NCBI GenBank assembly: GCA_029259935.1
Contig: JAJDEH010000241.1
Location: forward strand, 1-12,419
Direction: 5' to 3'
Length of the DNA stretch: 12,419 nt
Origin: Planctomycetota bacterium
GTDB taxonomy: Bacteria > Planctomycetota > Planctomycetia > Pirellulales > Pirellulaceae
In this document: one piece after another, positions 1 through 11,384 of the stretch
Layout of the letters: every line of letters begins with the position of its first letter
How positions within the stretch are numbered: position 1 is the first letter of the stretch
The notes under the pieces: generated by a model
What the model was told of the DNA's origin: nothing
The model's input: only the letters and a program-made list of their open reading frames with translations
Database searches by the model: none
Translations under genes and position numbers: made by a program

Positions 1-94
1 GGGGTGGTTCCGCAACGTGCCCCCACGGTCGTGTGCGCGGCGAGATTCCTTGGCGAGCGCAACTCACGGCTGTTAAGAATGGGGGATGAACGCC

Positions 95-179
95 GGGTGG
101 CTGGGGTCGAACGAATGTGAGCCCCCAGCGCGACAACGGCGACAACTGGGGGCTCGCTTTCGCTCGACCCCAGCCACCC
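95..179. repeat. Two-step long palindrome (REP-like or terminator-like)
   Basis: The outer arms at 95-110 and 164-179 are perfect 16-bp inverse complements, starting GGGTGGCTGGGG and ending CCCCAGCCACCC. The inner arms at 119-127 and 147-155 are a perfect 9-bp pair (GAGCCCCCA / TGGGGGCTC). The 8-nt spacers between the arms match at 5 of 8 positions. The loop 128-146 holds the 8-mer GCGACAAC twice. It starts 22 bp beyond the stop codon of the minus-strand gene at 202-537, so it could act as its terminator, although there is no T-run. Similar GC-rich palindromes are, from memory, scattered in planctomycete genomes. No second copy was noticed here. Confidence 0.75.
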
Positions 180-201
180 ATCCAATCAGCCAGACCGTCA
201 G

Positions 202-931: not shown

Positions 932-997
932 CCATCCGACACCCATTTTCCATCTGACGCCTATTTTCCATCTGACGCCTATTTTCCATCCGACGCC
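932..997. repeat. 18-bp tandem repeat, 3.7 copies, in the sulfatase leader
   Basis: Units lie at 932-949, 950-967 and 968-985, with a 12-bp partial unit at 986-997. Units 2 and 3 are identical (CCATCTGACGCCTATTTT). Unit 1 and the partial unit differ at a few bases (CCATCCGAC...). The array ends 12 bp before the sulfatase start codon and abuts its weak AGGG ribosome binding site, so copy-number change would alter the leader. Confidence 0.9.
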
Positions 998-1009
998 AGG
1001 GTCCTCGCC

Positions 1010-3632: not shown

Positions 3633-5099
3633 CTACCGCTTGTCGGCCTCCTTGTTTTCTGAATCGTTTTCTGAACCGTGCGCCCTTTGTAATTGCTCGG
3701 TCAGCTTGTCCAACTGTTTCCGTAGCGACGCCACTTCGCGGTGAAGCAGGTCCAGCTTCTTCGCGGTGTCCGACCGCTGAACTTGAATCGTGGCCGGAGC
3801 CACCGGTCGGGGTTGCAAACGCCGGCTGAGTTGTGCCTTCGCGTAGGCTTTCTGCGCTTCAACGAAGGCCCGCTGTAGACCCTTGGGTTGATTTTGGTTC
3901 GGCGCCTGCTGGCTTGGCTGGACGACGTGAATCCTTCCTTCCGGATCGGCAATGTACAGCAAATCGGGGTGAAGCGTCGTCAATTGTCGCCCGCTGTTGT
4001 CCCGGAATAGGTAAGAGTAATGAGACGACGCCTGTGCCGGTGTCGCCGGAGAGCGTCCGAGTGTCACCTTGACTTGCATTTCGGTTGGCGATTGTTCCTT
4101 GTTCTGCGAGTTCGGACGACGGATGGTAACCGTCAGCATCTCGCCTGCCTTGTGGCGGCCGACGGCCTGAATGACTTCGGCAGGCGAAGTGGCTTCCTCG
4201 TCGTCCAATTTCACAATACTGTCACCAACTCGAATGTCGGCGGCCGCCGCGGCCGACTTGGGCTGGACACGCTCCACAAGCACCCCCAGTTCTTCCACGG
4301 CCGGCGAGTCGGGTTCATGGAGTGTTACGCCAAGGTAGGCACGATGCACGACCACCGAGTTTTCGCCACTCCGTTCCTTGAGCAACATGTCGACAAATTC
4401 CGCTGGGATGGCCAAGGCCTCACCGCGCTCATGGCCGGTTCGGCCCTGTTTGGCCACGACGATCCCCAACAGTCCTCCCCGTCCATCGACCAGCGGAGCA
4501 CCCGCGCTCATCGGACCCACGGAAACATCGGTCTTGAACAGATTAATCGGACCCTTGGTAGCCGCGGATTTGCTGGTGACGATTCCTTGAGCGACCGCGC
4601 GGTCCTTGAGATCGGTGCAGTAGGTTGCCACGACCTGTTGCCCCAGTTCCCCTTGATCCTTGCCCGTTTGCACCGGCTGTAAATCGTCGGCATCTATTTT
4701 CAGCAGCTTCAGGCCGCTACGAAAATCGTCCACCAGCAGCCGGGCGGGAAGTGTGCGTCCGTCATTCAAGGTAACCGAAAATGCTCCCGGTTTGGAATGC
4801 GCCAGGACGGTGACAATCAGCCCGTCGGTCGAGACCGCCGTGCCGCTGGATAAGCTGATTTCGTCCGGAGTTGGGCGAACACCGACGGGCGCGTTGGCAT
4901 AGCCCACAATCACGCCTTTGGACACCTTGGCGTTGGGTTCGCTCTTCGTCCCCTCCGCGCGCCATTCGACCGCGACGGTGGCGGGCAGTGCTTTCTTTAC
5001 CGCCGCCCGCACGTCGTCCGCGGCGGCCGGCGATGGCCAGCACAAGATCGTGACAGCGGAAAAACAGAACAGTGTTTGAAAAATCCTTCGTTTCCTCAT
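3633..5099 (-). CDS. Exported HtrA-like pseudoprotease with PDZ domain and coiled coil
   Basis: This is a 488-residue protein with a signal peptide (MRKRRIF, hydrophobic core, AAA|D cleavage near residue 27). A trypsin-like HtrA domain follows (about 30-245), then a PDZ domain (about 253-350), a proline/glutamine-rich linker and a C-terminal coiled coil (about 444-474). Aligned with HtrA motifs, the His box reads TVLAHS, with H101 shifted by one. The Asp position is Gly129 (SGLKLLKID instead of TDLAVLKID). The Ser box is GPMSAGAPL instead of NPGNSGGPL, putting Ala199 at the nucleophile. Proteolysis is therefore unlikely; a chaperone, sensor or scaffold role in the periplasm is inferred. It lies 11 bp after the putative anti-sigma gene, with GGGAG as ribosome binding site. 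The final heptads (KKLDLLHREVASLRKQLDKL) suggest oligomerisation. Confidence 0.88.
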   Translation of the reverse strand: MRKRRIFQTLFCFSAVTILCWPSPAAADDVRAAVKKALPATVAVEWRAEGTKSEPNAKVSKGVIVGYANAPVGVRPTPDEISLSSGTAVSTDGLIVTVLAHSKPGAFSVTLNDGRTLPARLLVDDFRSGLKLLKIDADDLQPVQTGKDQGELGQQVVATYCTDLKDRAVAQGIVTSKSAATKGPINLFKTDVSVGPMSAGAPLVDGRGGLLGIVVAKQGRTGHERGEALAIPAEFVDMLLKERSGENSVVVHRAYLGVTLHEPDSPAVEELGVLVERVQPKSAAAAADIRVGDSIVKLDDEEATSPAEVIQAVGRHKAGEMLTVTIRRPNSQNKEQSPTEMQVKVTLGRSPATPAQASSHYSYLFRDNSGRQLTTLHPDLLYIADPEGRIHVVQPSQQAPNQNQPKGLQRAFVEAQKAYAKAQLSRRLQPRPVAPATIQVQRSDTAKKLDLLHREVASLRKQLDKLTEQLQRAHGSENDSENKEADKR

Positions 5100-5110
5100 C
5101 GTGCAACTCC

Positions 5111-5680
5111 CTAGAGAGAATTTTTGTTGGGTGTTTCGTCGTTGATGCCAAGCACGCGACGAATCGCGCGTTGCTCGGCGGACGTAAGCTCTCGTAATTC
5201 AATTTGCTCGACCTGAGCGGGAAAATAGACGCCAGTGGCGATGACTTCGGCCTGCTCGATGTCGGTCGAGTTCGTAAATACAACCGGCACAACTTGCGGT
5301 CGAACCGGCTGACCGATCGCGGTTTCCAGCGGCGCGACAACGGCCCTTGGTTTTGCCAGTTCAACGGGGACTCCATCATCGACGGTCGCCCCTCGGCTTC
5401 CGGTTTCGTTAGACGAAGCCACATCCCGCGAAACCTTTCCCTGGTCATCATTTGCGTTTCGGACGTCAGGTCGCAGGCTGCGATAGCCGGCCACGCACAA
5501 GACGATGGTCATCAGGCTCGCGGCCAACGAAACTCGTCTCATCCGGCGCCAGGCCATTCGTTTTTTGTGCCGGGCGACCAATTGCCGCGCAGAGCCATGG
5601 TGTTTCGTCGCGCAAAGTAAGCGATCCGCTTCCTCGCGCAACTGGTCTCCAAATGGTTCCAATTCACGCTTCTCATTCAT
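5111..5680 (-). CDS. Putative anti-sigma factor, single-pass membrane protein (189 aa)
   Basis: No family is recognised from sequence; the role is inferred from position directly after an ECF sigma gene. The protein has a charged cytoplasmic N-terminus (about 49 residues with many Arg and Lys), one transmembrane helix at about 50-66 (VSLAASLMTIVLCVAGY) and an extracytoplasmic part of about 120 residues. The HxxxCxxC motif of zinc-binding anti-sigma domains is absent, so if it is an anti-sigma factor it is of another class. I chose the ATG at 5680 rather than the in-frame ATG at 5713. It overlaps the sigma stop in the string ATGAATGA, typical of translational coupling, and has AAAAGAG just upstream. 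Using 5713 would add 11 residues. The HtrA-like gene follows after 11 bp. Confidence 0.72.
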   Translation of the reverse strand: MNEKRELEPFGDQLREEADRLLCATKHHGSARQLVARHKKRMAWRRMRRVSLAASLMTIVLCVAGYRSLRPDVRNANDDQGKVSRDVASSNETGSRGATVDDGVPVELAKPRAVVAPLETAIGQPVRPQVVPVVFTNSTDIEQAEVIATGVYFPAQVEQIELRELTSAEQRAIRRVLGINDETPNKNSL

Positions 5681-6326
5681 GGCGGCTCTTTTCGTCAGTC
5701 GCTGCCTTTTCATTCGTCACGATAGGTTCGTGAACTGCGGCGACTTGCACCTGGTGTTTTGATTTCCGTTGATCCTTCCGCAATTTAGACTTCAAGGCCG
5801 CCAGTCCATGATGCAGCCGCGATTTGACCGTGCCGGCCGGACATCCCATCACTTCGGCAATTTGATCATAGGTGAGTCCTTCCGAGTATCTCAAAACGAC
5901 GGCGATTCGCTGGGCTTCCGGCAACGACTCGACACAAGACCACAGGTTCTCTCGCCACTCTTCCAATTCGATCACGTCGGCCGGCGACTTCTCCGGTACG
6001 GCACCCTTCGACAAGTGAAACCAGGCCAGCCACCGTCGCCAGCCCCGCTCGGCCGACCGCAACCGCTTGCGGCGGACATTCAACAGGATCGAATACAACC
6101 AGGTTTCGACCTTGCTTTGCCCCGCGAACCGATGCCAGGACTGCATGGCTTGTAAAAAGGTTTCCTGCGCAAGTTCGTCGGCATCCCAGGAATTGCCCAC
6201 CAGCAGCACGGCCGCTCGCAGAATTCTCGGGTAATGTTGCTGGATTAGCGATTCAAAGTCCGGGTTATCCACGTGGATGGTCGAATGTGAGTGCGTTTGA
6301 GCCCGCGATATCGCAAGTGTTTTCAT
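5673..6326 (-). CDS. ECF-family RNA polymerase sigma factor (217 aa)
   Basis: This directs RNA polymerase to a specific promoter set. Sigma region 2 covers about residues 23-90, with the polymerase-binding stretch DADELAQETFLQA and the melting/-10 helix ETWLYSILLNVRRKRLR. Region 4 covers about 128-182, with the helix-turn-helix LTYDQIAEVMGCPAGTVKSR. The linker is short, with no region 3, as expected for ECF factors. A 30-residue charged tail follows region 4. It is the first gene of a three-gene operon with a putative membrane anti-sigma protein and an exported HtrA-like pseudoprotease, which suggests response to an envelope signal. The start ATG at 6326 has a poorly placed AGGG immediately before it. 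A second possible start was not obvious, and the N-terminal 20 residues are outside the conserved domain. Confidence 0.93.
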   Translation of the reverse strand: MKTLAISRAQTHSHSTIHVDNPDFESLIQQHYPRILRAAVLLVGNSWDADELAQETFLQAMQSWHRFAGQSKVETWLYSILLNVRRKRLRSAERGWRRWLAWFHLSKGAVPEKSPADVIELEEWRENLWSCVESLPEAQRIAVVLRYSEGLTYDQIAEVMGCPAGTVKSRLHHGLAALKSKLRKDQRKSKHQVQVAAVHEPIVTNEKAATDEKSRHE

Positions 6327-6383: not shown

Positions 6384-6449
6384 CTGATTCTCCGCCTTGC
6401 CAAGGAGCAGCTCTATCTGATTCTCCCGTGCCACAGGGGAGCTAGAGGG
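6384..6449. repeat. Tandem 33-bp imperfect repeat, each unit a hairpin
   Basis: Both units start CTGATTCTCC (6384 and 6417) and contain a hairpin of the form CTCC...GGAG, the second being CTCCC/GGGAG with a 9-nt loop. Period is 33 bp. The repeat lies about 60-125 nt upstream of the ECF sigma gene on its leader or promoter side. A regulatory role is possible but not shown. Confidence 0.6.
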
Positions 6450-6720
6450 GGTCCAAGATCCCCGGCCGCGCGCCAGCATGAATAGGGCCGCCGAGGGTGC
6501 ACTCAGCTCAGTAGCAAGAGACTAGCTGCTTTTTTGGGCGAAAACGGTGTGGTTTGATCGCTTGGAGGATGGGCGCGCGGTCGAATTTTCCGCTGCCCCA
6601 TTGGCAATGGAGGGATTCGTGCGAGAAACGCTGAAAAGGCGTGCTGCCAAGCTGGCTGCACCCTCTCGGTTATGAAACCGCTTAGTGAGAACGTGCGTGG
6701 TTTGGAATTCACTCTCGTTC
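6450..6720. other. Gene-poor stretch between sigma operon and cassette-like region
   Basis: No convincing gene was found. A weak terminator-like hairpin on the plus strand (AGTAGC 6510-6515, GCTGCT 6525-6530, then TTTTT) is visible, although no plus-strand gene precedes it. A GTG-started 69-codon minus frame at 6503-6712 begins just beyond the first attC-like site, but it has Pro/Ser/Arg-rich composition and no recognisable features. Confidence 0.4.
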
Positions 6721-6780
6721 GCCCAACGGGAAGTGTTCCCGTCGGCGCTGGTAGTGACGGTGCGGGAACACAGTGTTAGC
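6721..6780 (-). repeat. attC-like imperfect inverted repeat, candidate 1 (best)
   Basis: On the plus strand it reads GCCCAAC (6721-6727), GGGAA, GTGTTCCCG (6733-6741), a 21-nt loop, CGGGAACAC (6763-6771), AGT, GTTAGC (6775-6780). The 9-bp inner arms are perfect. The outer boxes pair partly and read as GTTGGGC (fits GTTRRRY) and GCTAAC on the minus strand. The stop codon TAA of the minus-strand gene 6776-7105 lies inside the GCTAAC box, as often in integron cassettes. No extrahelical base is evident in the inner stem. A competing hairpin exists (ACGGGAA-GTG-TTCCCGT, 6726-6742), so a plain terminator is an alternative. Confidence 0.5.
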
Positions 6781-7105
6781 GGCGTTGCTCGATGTCGCCG
6801 TCTTCCAAGATCACGTTACTCCCGGCAATGTCTGCGAGAAACCCGGATTCGATTTTGTACCAGAAACGAAGCATCCAGGAGTTCAGATCCTCCTGCGTAA
6901 ACACGAGTGTAACTCTTCCCGTTACATTCAAAAGTCGTAGAACTCCTCCTGCCGCACCGAATCCGAACAACACGACGAACGACGCGATTGACCAGCTAAC
7001 GTGAATCACACCGAAAACGCCAAGACCCACAACGACACCAAGGGGGATAATCACGAGTTGGCTATACAGGCAAAATCTGAGCCAGGTTTTTGCTCGCAGT
7101 TGCAC
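6776..7105 (-). CDS. Small membrane protein, hypothetical (109 aa)
   Basis: I do not recognise this protein. It has two predicted transmembrane helices (about residues 14-34 and 36-58: a Leu/Val/Gly-rich pair around LVIIPLGVVVGLGVFGVIHV and a second at SIASFVVLFGFGAAGGVL). A soluble C-terminal half of about 50 residues ends GDIEQRR. It starts with GTG at 7105, with no in-frame ATG upstream or close downstream and a poor ribosome binding site. The start is only 12 nt after the outer box of attC-like site 2, and its stop sits inside attC-like site 1, so it fills the space between two such sites exactly. Function is unknown. It could be a pseudo-coding frame, but the hydrophobic pattern and a clean helix-rich composition argue for a real protein. 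Confidence 0.6.
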   Translation of the reverse strand: MQLRAKTWLRFCLYSQLVIIPLGVVVGLGVFGVIHVSWSIASFVVLFGFGAAGGVLRLLNVTGRVTLVFTQEDLNSWMLRFWYKIESGFLADIAGSNVILEDGDIEQRR

Positions 7106-7117
7106 GATGCTTCAGCC

Positions 7118-7254
7118 GTCTAACGGGTTGAATGCCCGACACCGCCCTCAATGAAGGCAAGCAACGTCGAGTAAGAGTTGATTATCCAACGCAACGCTGG
7201 TTGCAACAAGAGCGAAGGTGTGCCGAGGCCGCAGCGGGCGTTTCATTGTTGGGA
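7118..7254 (-). repeat. attC-like imperfect inverted repeat, candidate 2
   Basis: The plus strand starts GTCTAAC (7118-7124, matching RYYYAAC) and ends GTTGGGA (7248-7254). Inside are the pairs TGAA (7129-7132) with TTCA (7242-7245) and GCCCG (7134-7138) with CGGGC (7235-7239). They are separated by one base on one arm and two on the other, resembling the extrahelical base of attC sites. In gene (minus) orientation the extra base is in the 5' arm, as expected. The middle contains smaller hairpins (GCAAC/GTTGC, GTTG/CAAC). The length of 137 bp is near the upper limit for attC. The stop codon of gene 7243-7563 lies in the arm. Confidence 0.42.
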
Positions 7255-7563
7255 GACTTGTGGCGTGACGCGAAGCGTATCGGCGTTACGTATGAAGTGA
7301 GCGCCCATGTCCAGCAATAACTTTGCGATAACCTCCGTGTGATCGTTTCCATCACGGTTAACGTTCGAGATGTCCAGCCATTCGACTTCAGCGACGGGTA
7401 CGGGCCCGAGAGTACCTGTTTCAAGGCAGCCTTCAACCGGACAAATCAGCCACGGTTGCCAATCGCTCATGTTTTCGTCCGTCACCCATTTCACACGGAA
7501 CCGGCAACCACGATCACGCAGTGTTTCAACGACGGATTTCCAATAGTCGCTGATTTCACTCAT
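7243..7563 (-). CDS. Hypothetical soluble protein (106 aa)
   Basis: This is an unrecognised acidic, soluble protein with alternating strand/helix pattern and no signal peptide. I prefer the ATG at 7563 (MSEISDYWKSVVETLRDRG) over the ATG at 7593, which would add 10 residues. The 7563 start has GGTTGGAT just upstream, while 7593 has no ribosome binding site. Two cysteines (CPVEGC, about residues 41-46) form a CxxxxC pair, and the middle is rich in Trp, Val and Glu (VAEVEWLDIS). The size, acidity and lack of partners resemble small immunity-type or cassette-encoded proteins in general, but no family can be named. Its stop codon falls inside attC-like site 2, and attC-like site 3 lies upstream. 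Confidence 0.6.
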   Translation of the reverse strand: MSEISDYWKSVVETLRDRGCRFRVKWVTDENMSDWQPWLICPVEGCLETGTLGPVPVAEVEWLDISNVNRDGNDHTEVIAKLLLDMGAHFIRNADTLRVTPQVSQQ

Positions 7564-7886
7564 GTCATCCAACCGGTTTCTGGCCGACAACATGTCGGGA
7601 AGTGTCGGAAACTCCCCAACTTAACGCGCGCATGGCCAGAATAGCAAATGCGGGTCGTAACTCGTCTTCCGAAGCGGGCACTACGGCGCAGGAACAGCAG
7701 GCCAGCGTGGTTGTTCATCATGCCGTGGGCGTGACACGGAACATCGACAGGTGTTGAACGGTCGAAAAATCGAACTGCGAGCTTGCTCCACTGCGACGAA
7801 TCGCCTGTTGCGGACCCGCACGCTAGGTGGTGTGGGGACTGGGCGGGTGAACCTGCTCGGCTACCCGATTTGGCAGTCGCGATACG
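7564..7886. other. Long intergenic stretch inside the cassette-like region
   Basis: No supported gene was found. A 6-bp hairpin CCGACA/TGTCGG (7584-7598 region) lies just upstream of the 7563 start. attC-like site 3 sits at 7619-7716. The remaining part, about 7717-7886, follows the stop of gene 7887-8210. It has short plus-strand frames (7751-7984, 7783-7995) without ribosome binding sites, which are judged spurious. Confidence 0.45.
7619..7716. repeat. attC-like imperfect inverted repeat, candidate 3
   Basis: The plus strand reads ACTTAAC (7619-7625, fits RYYYAAC), GCG, then CGC-A-TGGCC (7629-7637), a variable middle, GGCCAGCG (7700-7707), TG, GTTGTTC (7710-7716). The 8-bp inner stem is perfect except for A7632, which bulges like an attC extrahelical base. 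The bulge lies in the plus-strand 5' arm, the opposite orientation to the flanking genes and to candidate 2, which weakens the cassette reading. On the minus strand the outer box is GTTAAGT, matching GTTRRRY. Confidence 0.35.
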
Positions 7887-8210
7887 CTACAACTCCAGGA
7901 CGGCGCAGAACCAATCGTTCCAAGACGTACTGTCTAGCGCGTCTTCTCTCGCGTCTGGATGGCTTTCGAACCACCATGCCTTGAGAAAACCGTAGTCATC
8001 CAATGCGAGTTTAAAAGGCTCCCAATCGGGCATGCGGCCATCTTGATCGCACGCATCAGTCCCCGTGAAGAGGAAGTCGTTGAGAATGTGAAGCGGCGGG
8101 AAGTACTCGGACGAGTCGATAATGCTGAACGCACCATAGAGTACGCCGACATTTGTACTAATAATAGTCTTGGCGAGTTCAAGTTCAGTTGAGTGTTCGC
8201 GTTTCATCAT
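7887..8210 (-). CDS. Hypothetical soluble protein (107 aa)
   Basis: This is an unrecognised acidic protein, rich in aromatic residues (FEPFKL, WWFESHPD, WNDWFCAVLEL) and without signal peptide or membrane segment. The ATG at 8210 is chosen over an upstream in-frame start at 8234. GAGG lies 8 nt before it, and the upstream 8 codons are preceded by no signal. A second ATG follows immediately (MMKREHS). The composition, with many Asp, Glu, Phe and Trp, is typical of small globular proteins rather than a shadow frame. The frames on the other strand are short. It is a solitary gene in the cassette-like series. Its upstream border is near attC-like site 4 and its downstream intergenic space holds site 3. 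Function cannot be inferred. Confidence 0.62.
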   Translation of the reverse strand: MMKREHSTELELAKTIISTNVGVLYGAFSIIDSSEYFPPLHILNDFLFTGTDACDQDGRMPDWEPFKLALDDYGFLKAWWFESHPDAREDALDSTSWNDWFCAVLEL

Positions 8211-8242
8211 CGGCAGGGCCTCGAAACACAACAATGAGTACT

Positions 8243-8354
8243 GCCAACGGTAAGATCATTTTTTCACCGCCCCCTCGACAGTGACGACTTTGAACTGGCA
8301 TTGATTCTACCAGATGTTCGGAGTTTGTATGAAATCGAAGGTGAACGCGTTAGC
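8243..8354. repeat. Weak attC-like inverted repeat, candidate 4
   Basis: The outer boxes GCCAAC (8243-8248) and GTTAGC (8349-8354) pair with one wobble, and TTCACC (8263-8268) pairs with GGTGAA (8340-8345). The spacers between outer and inner boxes are very unequal (14 versus 3 nt), unlike a standard attC. A second GTTAGC...GCTAAC pair (8349-8354 with 8378-8383) overlaps. The minus-strand outer box CCGTTGG resembles those of candidates 1 and 2. Confidence 0.2.
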
Positions 8355-8415
8355 GACTAGCAATTAATCATTGTTGTGCTAACTGACCACACGGCATGGG
8401 AGAACAAACCGGAAT

Positions 8416-9090
8416 TCAGGCGTCGTTTTCTGACCGCATACCCTCAATCGGAAACTTCTCGACAAATTCAATCCATTCTTCAGGAGCGTCCCATCTCCTC
8501 AAATAGTCCGCGCGCTGAGGCTCAGATAGCGACCACCAAAATGGTTGCCACTCATTTTCGAACCACCATTCGCTTACTCCCTGCCGCCAAAGTCCGTCCA
8601 TCGGGGTGCTGCCCAAAAACAATATCCAGGGTGGTTGTGGCTCGCTCCAGTTGAGTTCCGCCACCTGATCCAGAAACTCACCATTTTCACCAACCAAGAG
8701 TAGTCCTGTGCCGATAGCATCGCGCAGTAGGACTGCAGCCAGTTGCACACACGAGTCTCTTCCGTGAAGATCGCAGTGCGGAACTCCGTTCACCAGAGCC
8801 TTGCCTTGCCCCCACGAAATCAAGCCACGACGCTCATGGCAGTCTAGCCAAACTGAAGGTCGCGCTAAACACACGCAACACTGGCTTGGAAAGACAGTCC
8901 TTAATGAACGAAGCATATCGTCGCTCAGAAGAATTGACACGGAGAAAAGTGATGGGAATCCCAAGACCTCCATCAACGTACCCGTTCCATCGAAACTACT
9001 ATCGGATTGGGGCTTCACTCTGAAAGCCCGATAGACCTGACGTTCCAATGATCGTTGGCTCCGTCTGTCCAACTTAAGTGGGTGACCCAT
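8416..9090 (-). CDS. Hypothetical Trp-rich protein with clustered Cys/His (up to 224 aa)
   Basis: This is an unrecognised protein of up to 224 residues from the ATG at 9090; a TTG lies one codon further out. The middle has CCVC, CHERRG and CDLHGRDSC (about residues 71-114), which together could bind a metal ion. The C-terminal third is strikingly rich in Trp (LWRQGVSEWWFENEWQPFWW). No signal peptide is present. The ribosome binding site at 9090 is weak, and the first 40 or so residues look low in structure. Translation may therefore begin later, for instance at the Met of MEVLGF (codon 40) or of MLRSLR (codon 60). A GTTGGAC box (minus strand, 9067-9073) lies inside the first codons and might mark the cassette edge, which would also favour a later start. 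Function is unknown. Confidence 0.6.
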   Translation of the reverse strand: MGHPLKLDRRSQRSLERQVYRAFRVKPQSDSSFDGTGTLMEVLGFPSLFSVSILLSDDMLRSLRTVFPSQCCVCLARPSVWLDCHERRGLISWGQGKALVNGVPHCDLHGRDSCVQLAAVLLRDAIGTGLLLVGENGEFLDQVAELNWSEPQPPWILFLGSTPMDGLWRQGVSEWWFENEWQPFWWSLSEPQRADYLRRWDAPEEWIEFVEKFPIEGMRSENDA

Positions 9091-9129
9091 CAAAATTTTT
9101 TCTCGAACTTAGTCGAACAGAATGCGGAA

Positions 9130-9372
9130 ATGATCACCTAGTCGCCGGACACGCGATTGCTCGCCGCCGGTGCCGAGCTAGAGGAAGATAGTGGCGGTGC
9201 AGTCTACGTTTGGGATGTGAGCGGCTGGACGCCACGAACTCAGTGGAAGATCAAGTCGCCGGACGTGTGGGGTGTGACAGCACTGTCTTTTTCGCCTGAC
9301 GGAGCGATGCTGGCCGTGGGAAAGAGCGACGGAGTCGTCTCACTAGTACCGGTTCCAAGTGTTGACCAATAG
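9130..9372 (+). pseudogene. WD40-repeat protein remnant (C-terminal fragment)
   Basis: The frame reads like the end of a beta-propeller protein. The segment SPDTRLLAAG begins a blade, AVYVWDVSGW gives the WD-type strand, and VTALSFSPDGAMLAVG begins the next blade before a stop at 9370-9372. In the same frame a TAG at 9139-9141 sits exactly where the residue before SPD should be, preceded by only ATG ATC ACC and unrelated codons. There is no ribosome binding site. A TTG at 9157 could start a 71-residue piece, but a single incomplete blade would not fold as a propeller. WD40 proteins are common in planctomycetes and often near ECF sigma genes. Here the rest of the gene is missing, its upstream end replaced by the cassette-like region. 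It converges with the sigma gene at 9401. Confidence 0.75.
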
Positions 9373-9400
9373 ACACACTGACCAACACTGCCTGCCGCCG

Positions 9401-10027
9401 TCACTCGGGGTCGGGCCAGTCGAGCAGCCCTTCTAGCTCTTTCCGCAGACGTCGGCGGATGCGGTAGATCCCTTGGCGGACTGCCTGTTCCGTCATCTCT
9501 AATTTCGCCGCCATCTCGCGCACTTCTTTTCCATCGATGGCGACCGCGCGGAAGGCCTCCCAAGTGTGAGCGTTGAAATCGGGGCGAATCAGTTCCAACG
9601 CCTGTCGCACCAACAGAGCATTGTCGGATTCAATTTCATCCTCGGTTTCCTCGGCCAGCGGATCGGGGACTTCGGAAAAGCGGAGGTTGGCGTCGGTTCC
9701 GCCCGCGGCGGCGGGCCGGCGCCCGGCGGCGTTGAAGTGATTCGCGATCTTGCTGCGAGCGACCGTTCTCAGCCAGGCCCGAAACGAACCGGTCCGCTGT
9801 TGATGCGTGAACCTGCCGATGCCTTGGGCCACGGCGCGAAACACATCCTGAAAGACATCCGGCATGTCATCCTGGGAAAGCCCGCCCCGGCGCAGCCAAC
9901 TGAAAACGAGCGGTCCGTAGAGTTGCACAATTCGTTGCCACGCATCTTGGTCGTCCGACTTGGCACGCTCCAACAAACTGAGAGAGGTGCGATCGTTGGA
10001 CGCTTCGTGGGACGGATTGGGTGGCAT
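9401..10027 (-). CDS. ECF-family RNA polymerase sigma factor (208 aa)
   Basis: Sigma region 2 spans about residues 25-100. Visible parts are AWQRIVQLYGPLVFSWLRR, the core-binding helix MPDVFQDVFRAVAQGI and the -10 helix SFRAWLRTVARSKIANHF. A Pro/Ala/Gly-rich linker follows (about 100-135), then region 4 (about 138-200) with the helix-turn-helix EVREMAAKLEMTEQAVRQGIYR. The ATG at 10027 is chosen, 19 bp after the stop of the HtrA gene. The longer open frame to 10159 runs through the HtrA coding end in another frame and adds only Ser/Pro-rich sequence. GAGG is 14 nt upstream, which is rather far. No anti-sigma gene follows, and the next thing downstream is the WD40 remnant on the other strand. 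Its regulator may be the membrane HtrA encoded just before it, but that is inference. Confidence 0.92.
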   Translation of the reverse strand: MPPNPSHEASNDRTSLSLLERAKSDDQDAWQRIVQLYGPLVFSWLRRGGLSQDDMPDVFQDVFRAVAQGIGRFTHQQRTGSFRAWLRTVARSKIANHFNAAGRRPAAAGGTDANLRFSEVPDPLAEETEDEIESDNALLVRQALELIRPDFNAHTWEAFRAVAIDGKEVREMAAKLEMTEQAVRQGIYRIRRRLRKELEGLLDWPDPE

Positions 10028-10046
10028 CGGCGCTGATCGGCCTCGA

Positions 10047-11384
10047 TTAATAGAGCTGCTGTGGCCGTTCGCCGACGACGACTTGCAGCCGCTGTTTTTC
10101 ACCGCCGCGGATAATGTCGATTGTGGCGGCCGACCCAATTTCGGTGGCCGCCACGGCACGGCTAAGCACCATGGGATTGATGACCGCGATATCGTTCCAC
10201 TGCACGACGAAGTCTCCCACTTCCAGACCGGCTTCCTTGGCCGGCGAAACGATCCCTTGAAATTCGACGACCTCCACGATCAACGCGCCTTCGACGCCTG
10301 GTAGGCTCAATTGCTTCGCCAGATCTTCGTCGATCTCGTCCATCTTAATTCCCAGCCAGCCGCGAGCGACATGTCCGTCGGTGCGAATGCGGTTGTAAAC
10401 GTCACGAGCCACGGCACTGGGAATTGCGAAACTGATCCCCTGATAGGTTTCGCCCAGGATCGCCGTGTTGATTCCGATCACTCGTCCCCGGTCGTCCACC
10501 AGTGGACCTCCGCTGTTGCCGGGATTCACGGCGGCGTCGGACTGAAGGAAGTCTTGGTAAATGTTGCCGGCCTTTTGACCACGGTTCTTCGCGCTTAAGA
10601 TTCCCGACGTCACGCTTTGGTGGAGTCCGAACGGGCTGCCGACGGCCCACACCAGCGCGCCAACCTGCACCTCTTCGCTATCACCCCACTCGACGGCGAT
10701 CAGGTTACCGGCGTCGATTTTGAGAACCGCCAAATCCGTGGGCGCGTCAACGCCGATTACCTCCGCGGGTATCTGGCGGTCGTCGCCCAGCGTGACTTGG
10801 ATCGACCGGGCACCGGCAATCACATGGCGATTCGTCAGGATGTATCCTTCCGTATCGACAATGACGCCCGAACCTTGTCCCTCGCTCTCTCGCGAGTGCG
10901 GACCGAACAGATGGCTCGCTTCATCGGTATTCACCCGGCCGCTTGTGACGGCCTGAATATGCACGACGCTTGGTCCGGCCCGCCGGGCTACCATCTGCGA
11001 AGCCAACGTCAGTTGACGCAGCGGCTGGTGGGCGAGAGCTTCGCCGGAAGTTTCGTATTCCGCCCGCAGCCGGCCCTGCGTCGAGGCGTAGTAATACTCT
11101 TCCGCGATATCGGGCACGATGTATTTGACCACCAGCAGAATCAGCAACACGGACATGAGCCATATCAGCCGCGCGACAACCAGATTCGAGCCGCCGCCGG
11201 CTTCCCTCTTCGTCCTCCCCGCGGGCTTGACCGGTTTAGCGGGGAGCATCTGGATCCCCGGATCGTTGCTTCCGACCATCGCTTCTTCGCGCACCACTTT
11301 CTCGTCATGCTCTGGAACGGGGGATGGAGCGGGGTCGCCCGTGGGCGACTGCTCGAACTCCGACCTAGGAAAAGAACTTTGCAT
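10047..11384 (-). CDS. Membrane-anchored HtrA/DegP-type serine protease
   Basis: This is a 445-residue S1C-family protease for envelope protein quality control. A proline-rich cytoplasmic N-terminus of about 65 residues precedes one transmembrane helix (about 68-90), which leaves the protease outside the cytoplasmic membrane. The catalytic triad is intact: H187 in LTNRHV, D217 in PTDLAVLKID and S291 in NPGNSGGPL. One PDZ domain follows (about 340-440, starting GWLGIKM). The single PDZ and membrane anchor resemble DegS more than DegP, but orthology is not claimed and I give no symbol. The start ATG has GAGG 6 nt upstream. The ECF sigma gene follows after 19 bp in the same direction, so a regulatory link between protease and sigma factor is plausible. 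Contrast the triad-less relative at 3633-5099. Confidence 0.95.
   Translation of the reverse strand: MQSSFPRSEFEQSPTGDPAPSPVPEHDEKVVREEAMVGSNDPGIQMLPAKPVKPAGRTKREAGGGSNLVVARLIWLMSVLLILLVVKYIVPDIAEEYYYASTQGRLRAEYETSGEALAHQPLRQLTLASQMVARRAGPSVVHIQAVTSGRVNTDEASHLFGPHSRESEGQGSGVIVDTEGYILTNRHVIAGARSIQVTLGDDRQIPAEVIGVDAPTDLAVLKIDAGNLIAVEWGDSEEVQVGALVWAVGSPFGLHQSVTSGILSAKNRGQKAGNIYQDFLQSDAAVNPGNSGGPLVDDRGRVIGINTAILGETYQGISFAIPSAVARDVYNRIRTDGHVARGWLGIKMDEIDEDLAKQLSLPGVEGALIVEVVEFQGIVSPAKEAGLEVGDFVVQWNDIAVINPMVLSRAVAATEIGSAATIDIIRGGEKQRLQVVVGERPQQLY

What the first reader, a model, noticed from the sequence alone, without database searches (positions are those of the whole stretch)
6720..9093. Possible integron-type cassette cluster without integrase
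Four codirectional orphan genes lie in a row, each solitary and each followed by a non-coding stretch holding an imperfect inverted repeat bounded by RYYYAAC / GTTRRRY-like boxes (6721-6780, 7118-7254, 7619-7716, weakly 8243-8354). Two stop codons (6776, 7243) fall inside these elements and the start at 7105 is 12 nt from the next box, which is the geometry of gene cassettes. Integron integrases are known in some planctomycetes. Caveats: single boxes of this degeneracy are expected a few times by chance in 2.4 kb, site 3 seems oriented the other way by its bulged base, and site 4 is poor. The cassette proteins are unrecognised, so their functions would be new.
Basis: partly seen in the sequence, partly recalled or inferred. 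Interest (0 to 1): 0.72.

Follow-up and report, generated by a model that had tools for sequence, protein, structure and literature searches.

The report
Intron scrap behind an orphan gene
A run of four unfamiliar genes holds the tail end of a mobile intron of the kind that often lands in integron cassettes, so the run may be a worn-out cassette array, but no working cassette site can be shown.

Summary
The four codirectional orphan genes are real (minus strand). The RYYYAAC/GTTRRRY boxes exist, but beside these genes they are no commoner than chance. A covariance model of attC, trained on 13 environmental attCs, finds held-out attCs of known cassette arrays at E<=4e-4 but nothing significant in the window (best E=2).

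It lies on the strand opposite to gene 3, 17 nt from its stop, the layout of introns that insert into attC. Of 8 distinct plasmid insertions of such introns with both ends visible, 6 lie in sites the attC model hits.

Best reading: a relict cassette array with decayed attCs, marked by an intron scrap. Close rival: an intron scrap behind an ordinary orphan gene. No genome is held for the window, so integrase elsewhere and conservation in relatives could not be tested.

The parts
7798..7869 (+). Group IIC intron remnant: domain V, domain VI and 3' end (..CCCGAT); 3' exon starts with T at 7870
   Evidence: Covariance model R1, 71.7 bits, E=2.4e-13, window not in training; blastn to plasmid introns; fold
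7711..7714 (+). TTGT, possible 5' junction of the intron remnant (7715-7869 would then be 155 nt); unproven
   Evidence: Read; TTGT occurs in 23.5% of 85-nt stretches of the window; 7713-7797 is not similar to known intron 5' ends (shuffle p 0.21-0.84)
8416..9093 (-). Gene 4, orphan ORF, 225 aa (database form starts at 9090)
   Evidence: no relative but itself among 467 candidates
7887..8234 (-). Gene 3, orphan ORF, 115 aa (database form of 107 aa starts at 8210); sub-threshold DUF6971
7243..7593 (-). Gene 2, ORF of 116 aa (database form of 106 aa starts at 7563); sub-threshold DUF6678
6776..7105 (-). Gene 1, orphan ORF, 109 aa
   Evidence: not searched in the large protein database (cap)
6721..6781 (.).
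   Evidence: Shuffle p=0.003 by own scorer; no hit at E<=10
7118..7254 (.).
   Evidence: Shuffle p=0.030; only a 7.4-bit match, E=4.6, on the other strand at 7184-7254
7567..7573 (-). GTTGGAT, R'-type box 3 nt before the gene 2 ATG at 7563; far end of the best-scoring site behind gene 3
   Evidence: shuffle p=0.056
8226..8379 (.).
   Evidence: shuffle p=0.011

Best explanation
SHOWN: the 3' end (domains V and VI) of a group IIC intron lies behind gene 3 on the opposite strand, and no intron part is recognisable upstream of domain V. INFERRED: it is a 5'-truncated copy (incomplete reverse transcription) or a deletion remnant of an intron of the lineage that inserts at TTGT|T in the R'' box of attC sites. 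The four orphan genes would then be old integron cassettes, captured by an integrase that is not on this contig, whose attC sites have decayed until only palindromic traces remain. The array would no longer be mobile; its genes may still be expressed as an ordinary run.
For: Intron match E=2.4e-13 with the window left out of training. Opposite strand to gene 3, 17 nt from its stop, 3' exon T. Plasmid introns of this kind: 3' exon T in 10 of 11 that could be cut; 5' exon TTGT in 8 of 8 insertions with both ends, 6 of 8 in attC-model hits. The four gaps together exceed shuffles (Fisher 5e-5). Cluster genes have 51-52% GC against 56-62% in seven flanking genes. No terminator-like site between genes 2 and 3 by a strict scan.
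Against: No attC-model hit, although split attCs at intron junctions in plasmids are hit at E<=0.015. Boxes at chance. No recognisable intron 5' end. Group IIC introns mostly insert after terminators and only a smaller fraction in attC (PMC4424553, passages); 2 of the 8 plasmid insertions are not in attC-model hits. No integrase on the contig (ORFs; no IntI-type match was looked for beyond that).
Confidence: 0.5

Rival explanations
1. No integron is involved. Four ordinary strain-specific genes lie in a row; a group IIC intron hit a hairpin other than attC behind gene 3, and the scrap is all that is left. The attC-like boxes are chance.
For: attC model negative; boxes at chance; 2 of 8 plasmid insertions are not in attC-model hits, one (L067) beside a terminator-like hairpin by eye; group IIC introns mostly follow terminators (PMC4424553, passages); a related intron in L070 sits in an IncP plasmid backbone with a different 3' exon.
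Against: No terminator-like site found between genes 2 and 3; lower GC and orphan status of all four genes; combined palindrome test.
Confidence: 0.38
2. An intact cassette array whose attC sites belong to a type that my model does not cover, for instance a planctomycete type.
For: Taxon-specific attC models, one for Planctomycetes, have been built (PMC8352920, passages), so attCs differ by taxon, and none of my training sites is known to be planctomycete. Judged by eye from its translation, the 88% relative of gene 2 keeps both ends of the stretch behind the gene (GTPSLLLQ and VSG[I/V]Q).
Against: The model works on held-out attCs from gammaproteobacterial plasmids. Predicted single-strand folds of sites 1 and 4 are not attC-like.
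Confidence: 0.1

Closest known systems
Truncated group IIC-attC introns in cassette arrays (UHB.F1 of Tanatar-5 soda lake; PMC7923331, passages)
   Same: 5'-truncated group IIC intron opposite to codirectional orphan genes, on a metagenome contig without integrase
   Different: There attC sites were detected; here they are not, and only domains V-VI are left
Group IIC introns in class 1 integron cassettes (for example L073, L074)
   Same: Domain V-VI sequence about 76-78% identical; opposite strand; 3' exon T; gene stop close by
   Different: Those have a reverse transcriptase gene, a GTACGCC 5' end and an attC-model hit
167-nt intron remnant in Nitrosococcus halophilus pNHAL01 (L069:2905-3071)
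   Same: Short remnant without reverse transcriptase, followed by the end of an opposite-strand gene
   Different: There the intron 5' end and an attC-model hit (E=0.005) are recognisable
CALIN (cluster of attC sites without integrase)
   Same: Run of codirectional orphan genes with palindromes between them, no integrase seen
   Different: A CALIN is defined by detected attC sites; none is detected here

Membership tests
CALIN / integron cassette array | attC sites detected by covariance model | tested here: not met
   R3: best E=2 in the window, none on the gene strand inside the cluster; R2: none at E<=10; positive controls found
CALIN / integron cassette array | codirectional single genes separated by palindromic sites | tested here: inconclusive
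   Genes codirectional; gaps exceed shuffles as a set but score below control attCs
Integron | intI gene and attI in the genome | not testable with these tools
   No genome held; none evident among the contig's ORFs
Integron | single gene-plus-attC units gained and lost in relatives | not testable with these tools
   The one genome scan found no near relative; contigs behind P0001 and P0002 could not be fetched
Group IIC intron | domain V and VI sequence and structure, 3' end | tested here: met
Group IIC intron | intron 5' end and reverse transcriptase gene | tested here: not met
   No similarity to intron 5' ends; no YxDD motif upstream; so a remnant, not an intact intron
Group IIC-attC insertion | opposite strand to the cassette gene, 3' exon T, close behind the stop | tested here: met
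Group IIC-attC insertion | 5' exon is an attC stem-loop ending in TTGT | tested here: inconclusive
   TTGT at 7711-7714 (chance 23.5%), no attC-model hit, joined-site score shuffle p=0.056

The most novel reading that the evidence does not exclude
The region is a living cassette array of a lineage whose attC sites have left the canonical bulged form, and the intron scrap shows that attC-seeking introns still recognise them; recognition by introns would then be broader than recognition by present attC models.
Probability: 0.08. Interest if true: 0.55.

Novelty: new member of a known kind. Interest (0 to 1): 0.33.

Why it matters
Intron scraps of this lineage can be detected by covariance model even where attC sites cannot, so they could mark decayed or atypical cassette arrays that attC searches miss. 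If the reading holds, it adds a relict array and four uncharacterised genes to the cassette pool.

Tried and rejected
Rejected: canonical attC sites at the four named places; the box cores as evidence in themselves; 7713-7797 as a recognisable intron 5' end (a local match of 7734-7770 to the antisense of a reverse transcriptase gene in L064, E=0.003 in a small database, was not followed). A terminator between genes 2 and 3 found no support in a strict scan.

Led nowhere: HtrA of the window as bait gave four distant loci, Deltaproteobacteria and Tissierellales. Genes 1, 2 and 4 in viral contigs: no relative (gene 3 not tried). DUF6678 in 297 genomes: 0, but nothing rang in the controls either. 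Gene 2 in plasmids: one weak DUF6678 hit. Sulfatase in plasmids for taxonomy: undecided. Phage records: no match. Rfam did not flag the intron. Structure models of genes 3 and 4 too poor to search (mean pLDDT 49 and 38). A full-length attC alignment misaligned the long sites and was not used. Model R2 carried poly-A loops as match positions and was replaced by R3. The first empty-site joins were off by two bases on each side; one search is the corrected one.
Full report
THE WINDOW. It is a whole 12,419-nt contig: the proteins of genes 3 and 4 are listed with a longest contig of that length, and no genome is held for it. Flanking genes include a sulfatase (1010-2440), a PDZ protein (3633-5099), two ECF-type sigma factors (5673-6326, 9401-10159) and an HtrA-type protease (10047-11384) (the PDZ label is by eye from its sequence). 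ARAGORN finds no tRNA gene.

THE GENES. Four minus-strand ORFs lie between 6776 and 9093. Only sub-threshold DUF6678 and DUF6971 matches were found. Gene 4 has no relative but itself among 467 candidates. Gene 3 has one besides itself, at 48%. For gene 2 the search lists a 100% identical protein cluster of three members, marked as encoded by the window but with a longest contig of 1,063 nt, and one protein at 88% on a 950-nt contig. GC is 51-52% against 56-62% in seven flanking genes. Right of gene 4 lies a WD40 fragment on the other strand.

THE attC TEST. I took IntI loci from an integron-rich phylum (107 of 297 genomes over the TIGR02249 cut-off), fetched 20 regions beside them and 10 intron-bearing regions, and picked attC sites by scanner and eye. 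Thirteen attCs, loops replaced by N, made model R3. In 30 environmental loci it gives 65 matches at E<=5; 45 have E<0.01, 13 of them the training sites. In five plasmid loci not used for training its 8 best matches (E<=4e-4) all lie on the cassette strand; two of the 8 are the same site in two plasmids. Of four sites between annotated cassette genes that my scanner had proposed in L065 and L074, R3 finds 3 and misses a 126-nt one (partial match, E=0.52). A warning about E near 0.01: R3 also gives E=0.011 inside an IncP plasmid backbone (L070), probably false. In the window, filters off, there are 7 matches at E<=10, best E=2; the two inside the cluster are on the strand opposite to the genes. 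My own looser scorer puts the four gaps above shuffles as a set, Fisher 5e-5, but below the control attCs it could locate; it missed 1 of 11 control regions, and most controls had been chosen with its help. Single boxes are at chance. So something palindromic is there, but no canonical attC.

THE INTRON. blastn of 6400-9400 against plasmids returned matches to 7795-7875 in the rows listed (20 of 180 records at E<=0.01; best 78% identity), at the 3' ends of group II introns, several beside resistance cassettes. A shorter query matched 471 records at E<=10, some through domain V alone and a few elsewhere (60 rows seen). A covariance model of domains V-VI from nine plasmid introns, the window left out, scores 7798-7870 at 71.7 bits, E=2.4e-13, the only match in the window at E<=10. 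In 38 other loci (394 kb) it has two matches, both the same intron. The window's RNA folds into both hairpins, as do two plasmid introns (z -2.4 against -3.8 and -4.5); by eye the helices are kept despite changed letters.

ITS PLACE. By pattern the intron ends at 7869, the 3' exon starts with T, and gene 3's stop, on the other strand, is 17 nt on. Of 12 plasmid introns, 11 could be cut at the ..CCGAT end; in 10 of these the 3' exon begins with T. From the 30 loci returned, 27 ends in 25 loci were placed by pattern (at least one, in L105, doubtful): 26 are followed by T, and 20 by an opposite-strand ORF of 60 codons or more ending within 50 nt, against 22% of 4,000 random positions in other loci. 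Nine ends with 1,500 nt upstream showed no YxDD motif by my pattern, so reduced or broken copies seem common, though some of them (L080, L086) still show the end of a reverse transcriptase gene by eye. Eight distinct plasmid insertions show both ends, all with a 5' exon ending in TTGT. The attC model hits six of these 5' exons (L064 E=0.015; L066/L071 5e-5; second copy in L068 4e-6; L069 0.005; L073 4e-5; L074 1.5e-5) and misses two (L067; first copy in L068). Plasmid records with resistance integrons are over-represented, so 6 of 8 may overstate the preference for attC.

WHAT THE JUNCTIONS SAY. Upstream of domain V nothing is recognisable. The nearest TTGT is at 7711-7714; such a word falls in 23.5% of 85-nt stretches. 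With 7715-7869 left out, the best site runs from GCCAAAC beside the gene 3 stop to GTTGGAT at 7567-7573, three bases before the gene 2 ATG, which is cassette-like geometry, but its shuffle p is only 0.056.

LITERATURE. PMC7923331 (passages): IIC-attC introns insert in R'' at TTGT/T, opposite to the cassettes, also in CALINs, can also target terminators, and a truncated one is known from a metagenome. PMC4424553 (passages): group IIC introns insert at terminators and a smaller fraction in attC; most bacterial copies are truncated or inactivated. PMC2426708 and PMC8352920 (passages): integrons, and enough attCs for a model, occur in Planctomycetes. Other papers were seen only as search listings.

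JUDGEMENT. That 7798-7869 is a group IIC intron 3' end is close to certain. Its meaning is not: relict array about 0.5, no integron about 0.38, atypical intact array about 0.1. The finding is useful mainly because the intron is a detectable mark where attC sites are not.

Noticed in passing
L069:2905-3071 (Nitrosococcus halophilus plasmid pNHAL01): A 167-nt miniature group IIC intron: the 5' end (GTACGCC..) lies 96 nt before domain V, with no reverse transcriptase between, beside an attC-model hit. Another short copy, 483 nt between the two points, is in L068.
   Followed up: partly
   Followed up: partly
window 9145-9372: WD40-repeat fragment on the + strand, cut off at its N-terminal side, right of gene 4; possible edge of the cluster.
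   Followed up: partly
window 86-186: Long near-perfect inverted repeat of about 100 nt near the contig end (weak plant microRNA-type Rfam matches on both strands, below gathering scores).
   Followed up: no
window 932-1000: Tandem repeat of an 18-nt unit, about three and a half copies, just before the sulfatase start at 1010 (read).
   Followed up: no
window 6493-6516 / 6642-6665: 24-nt inverted repeat, 79% complementary, left of the cluster.
   Followed up: no
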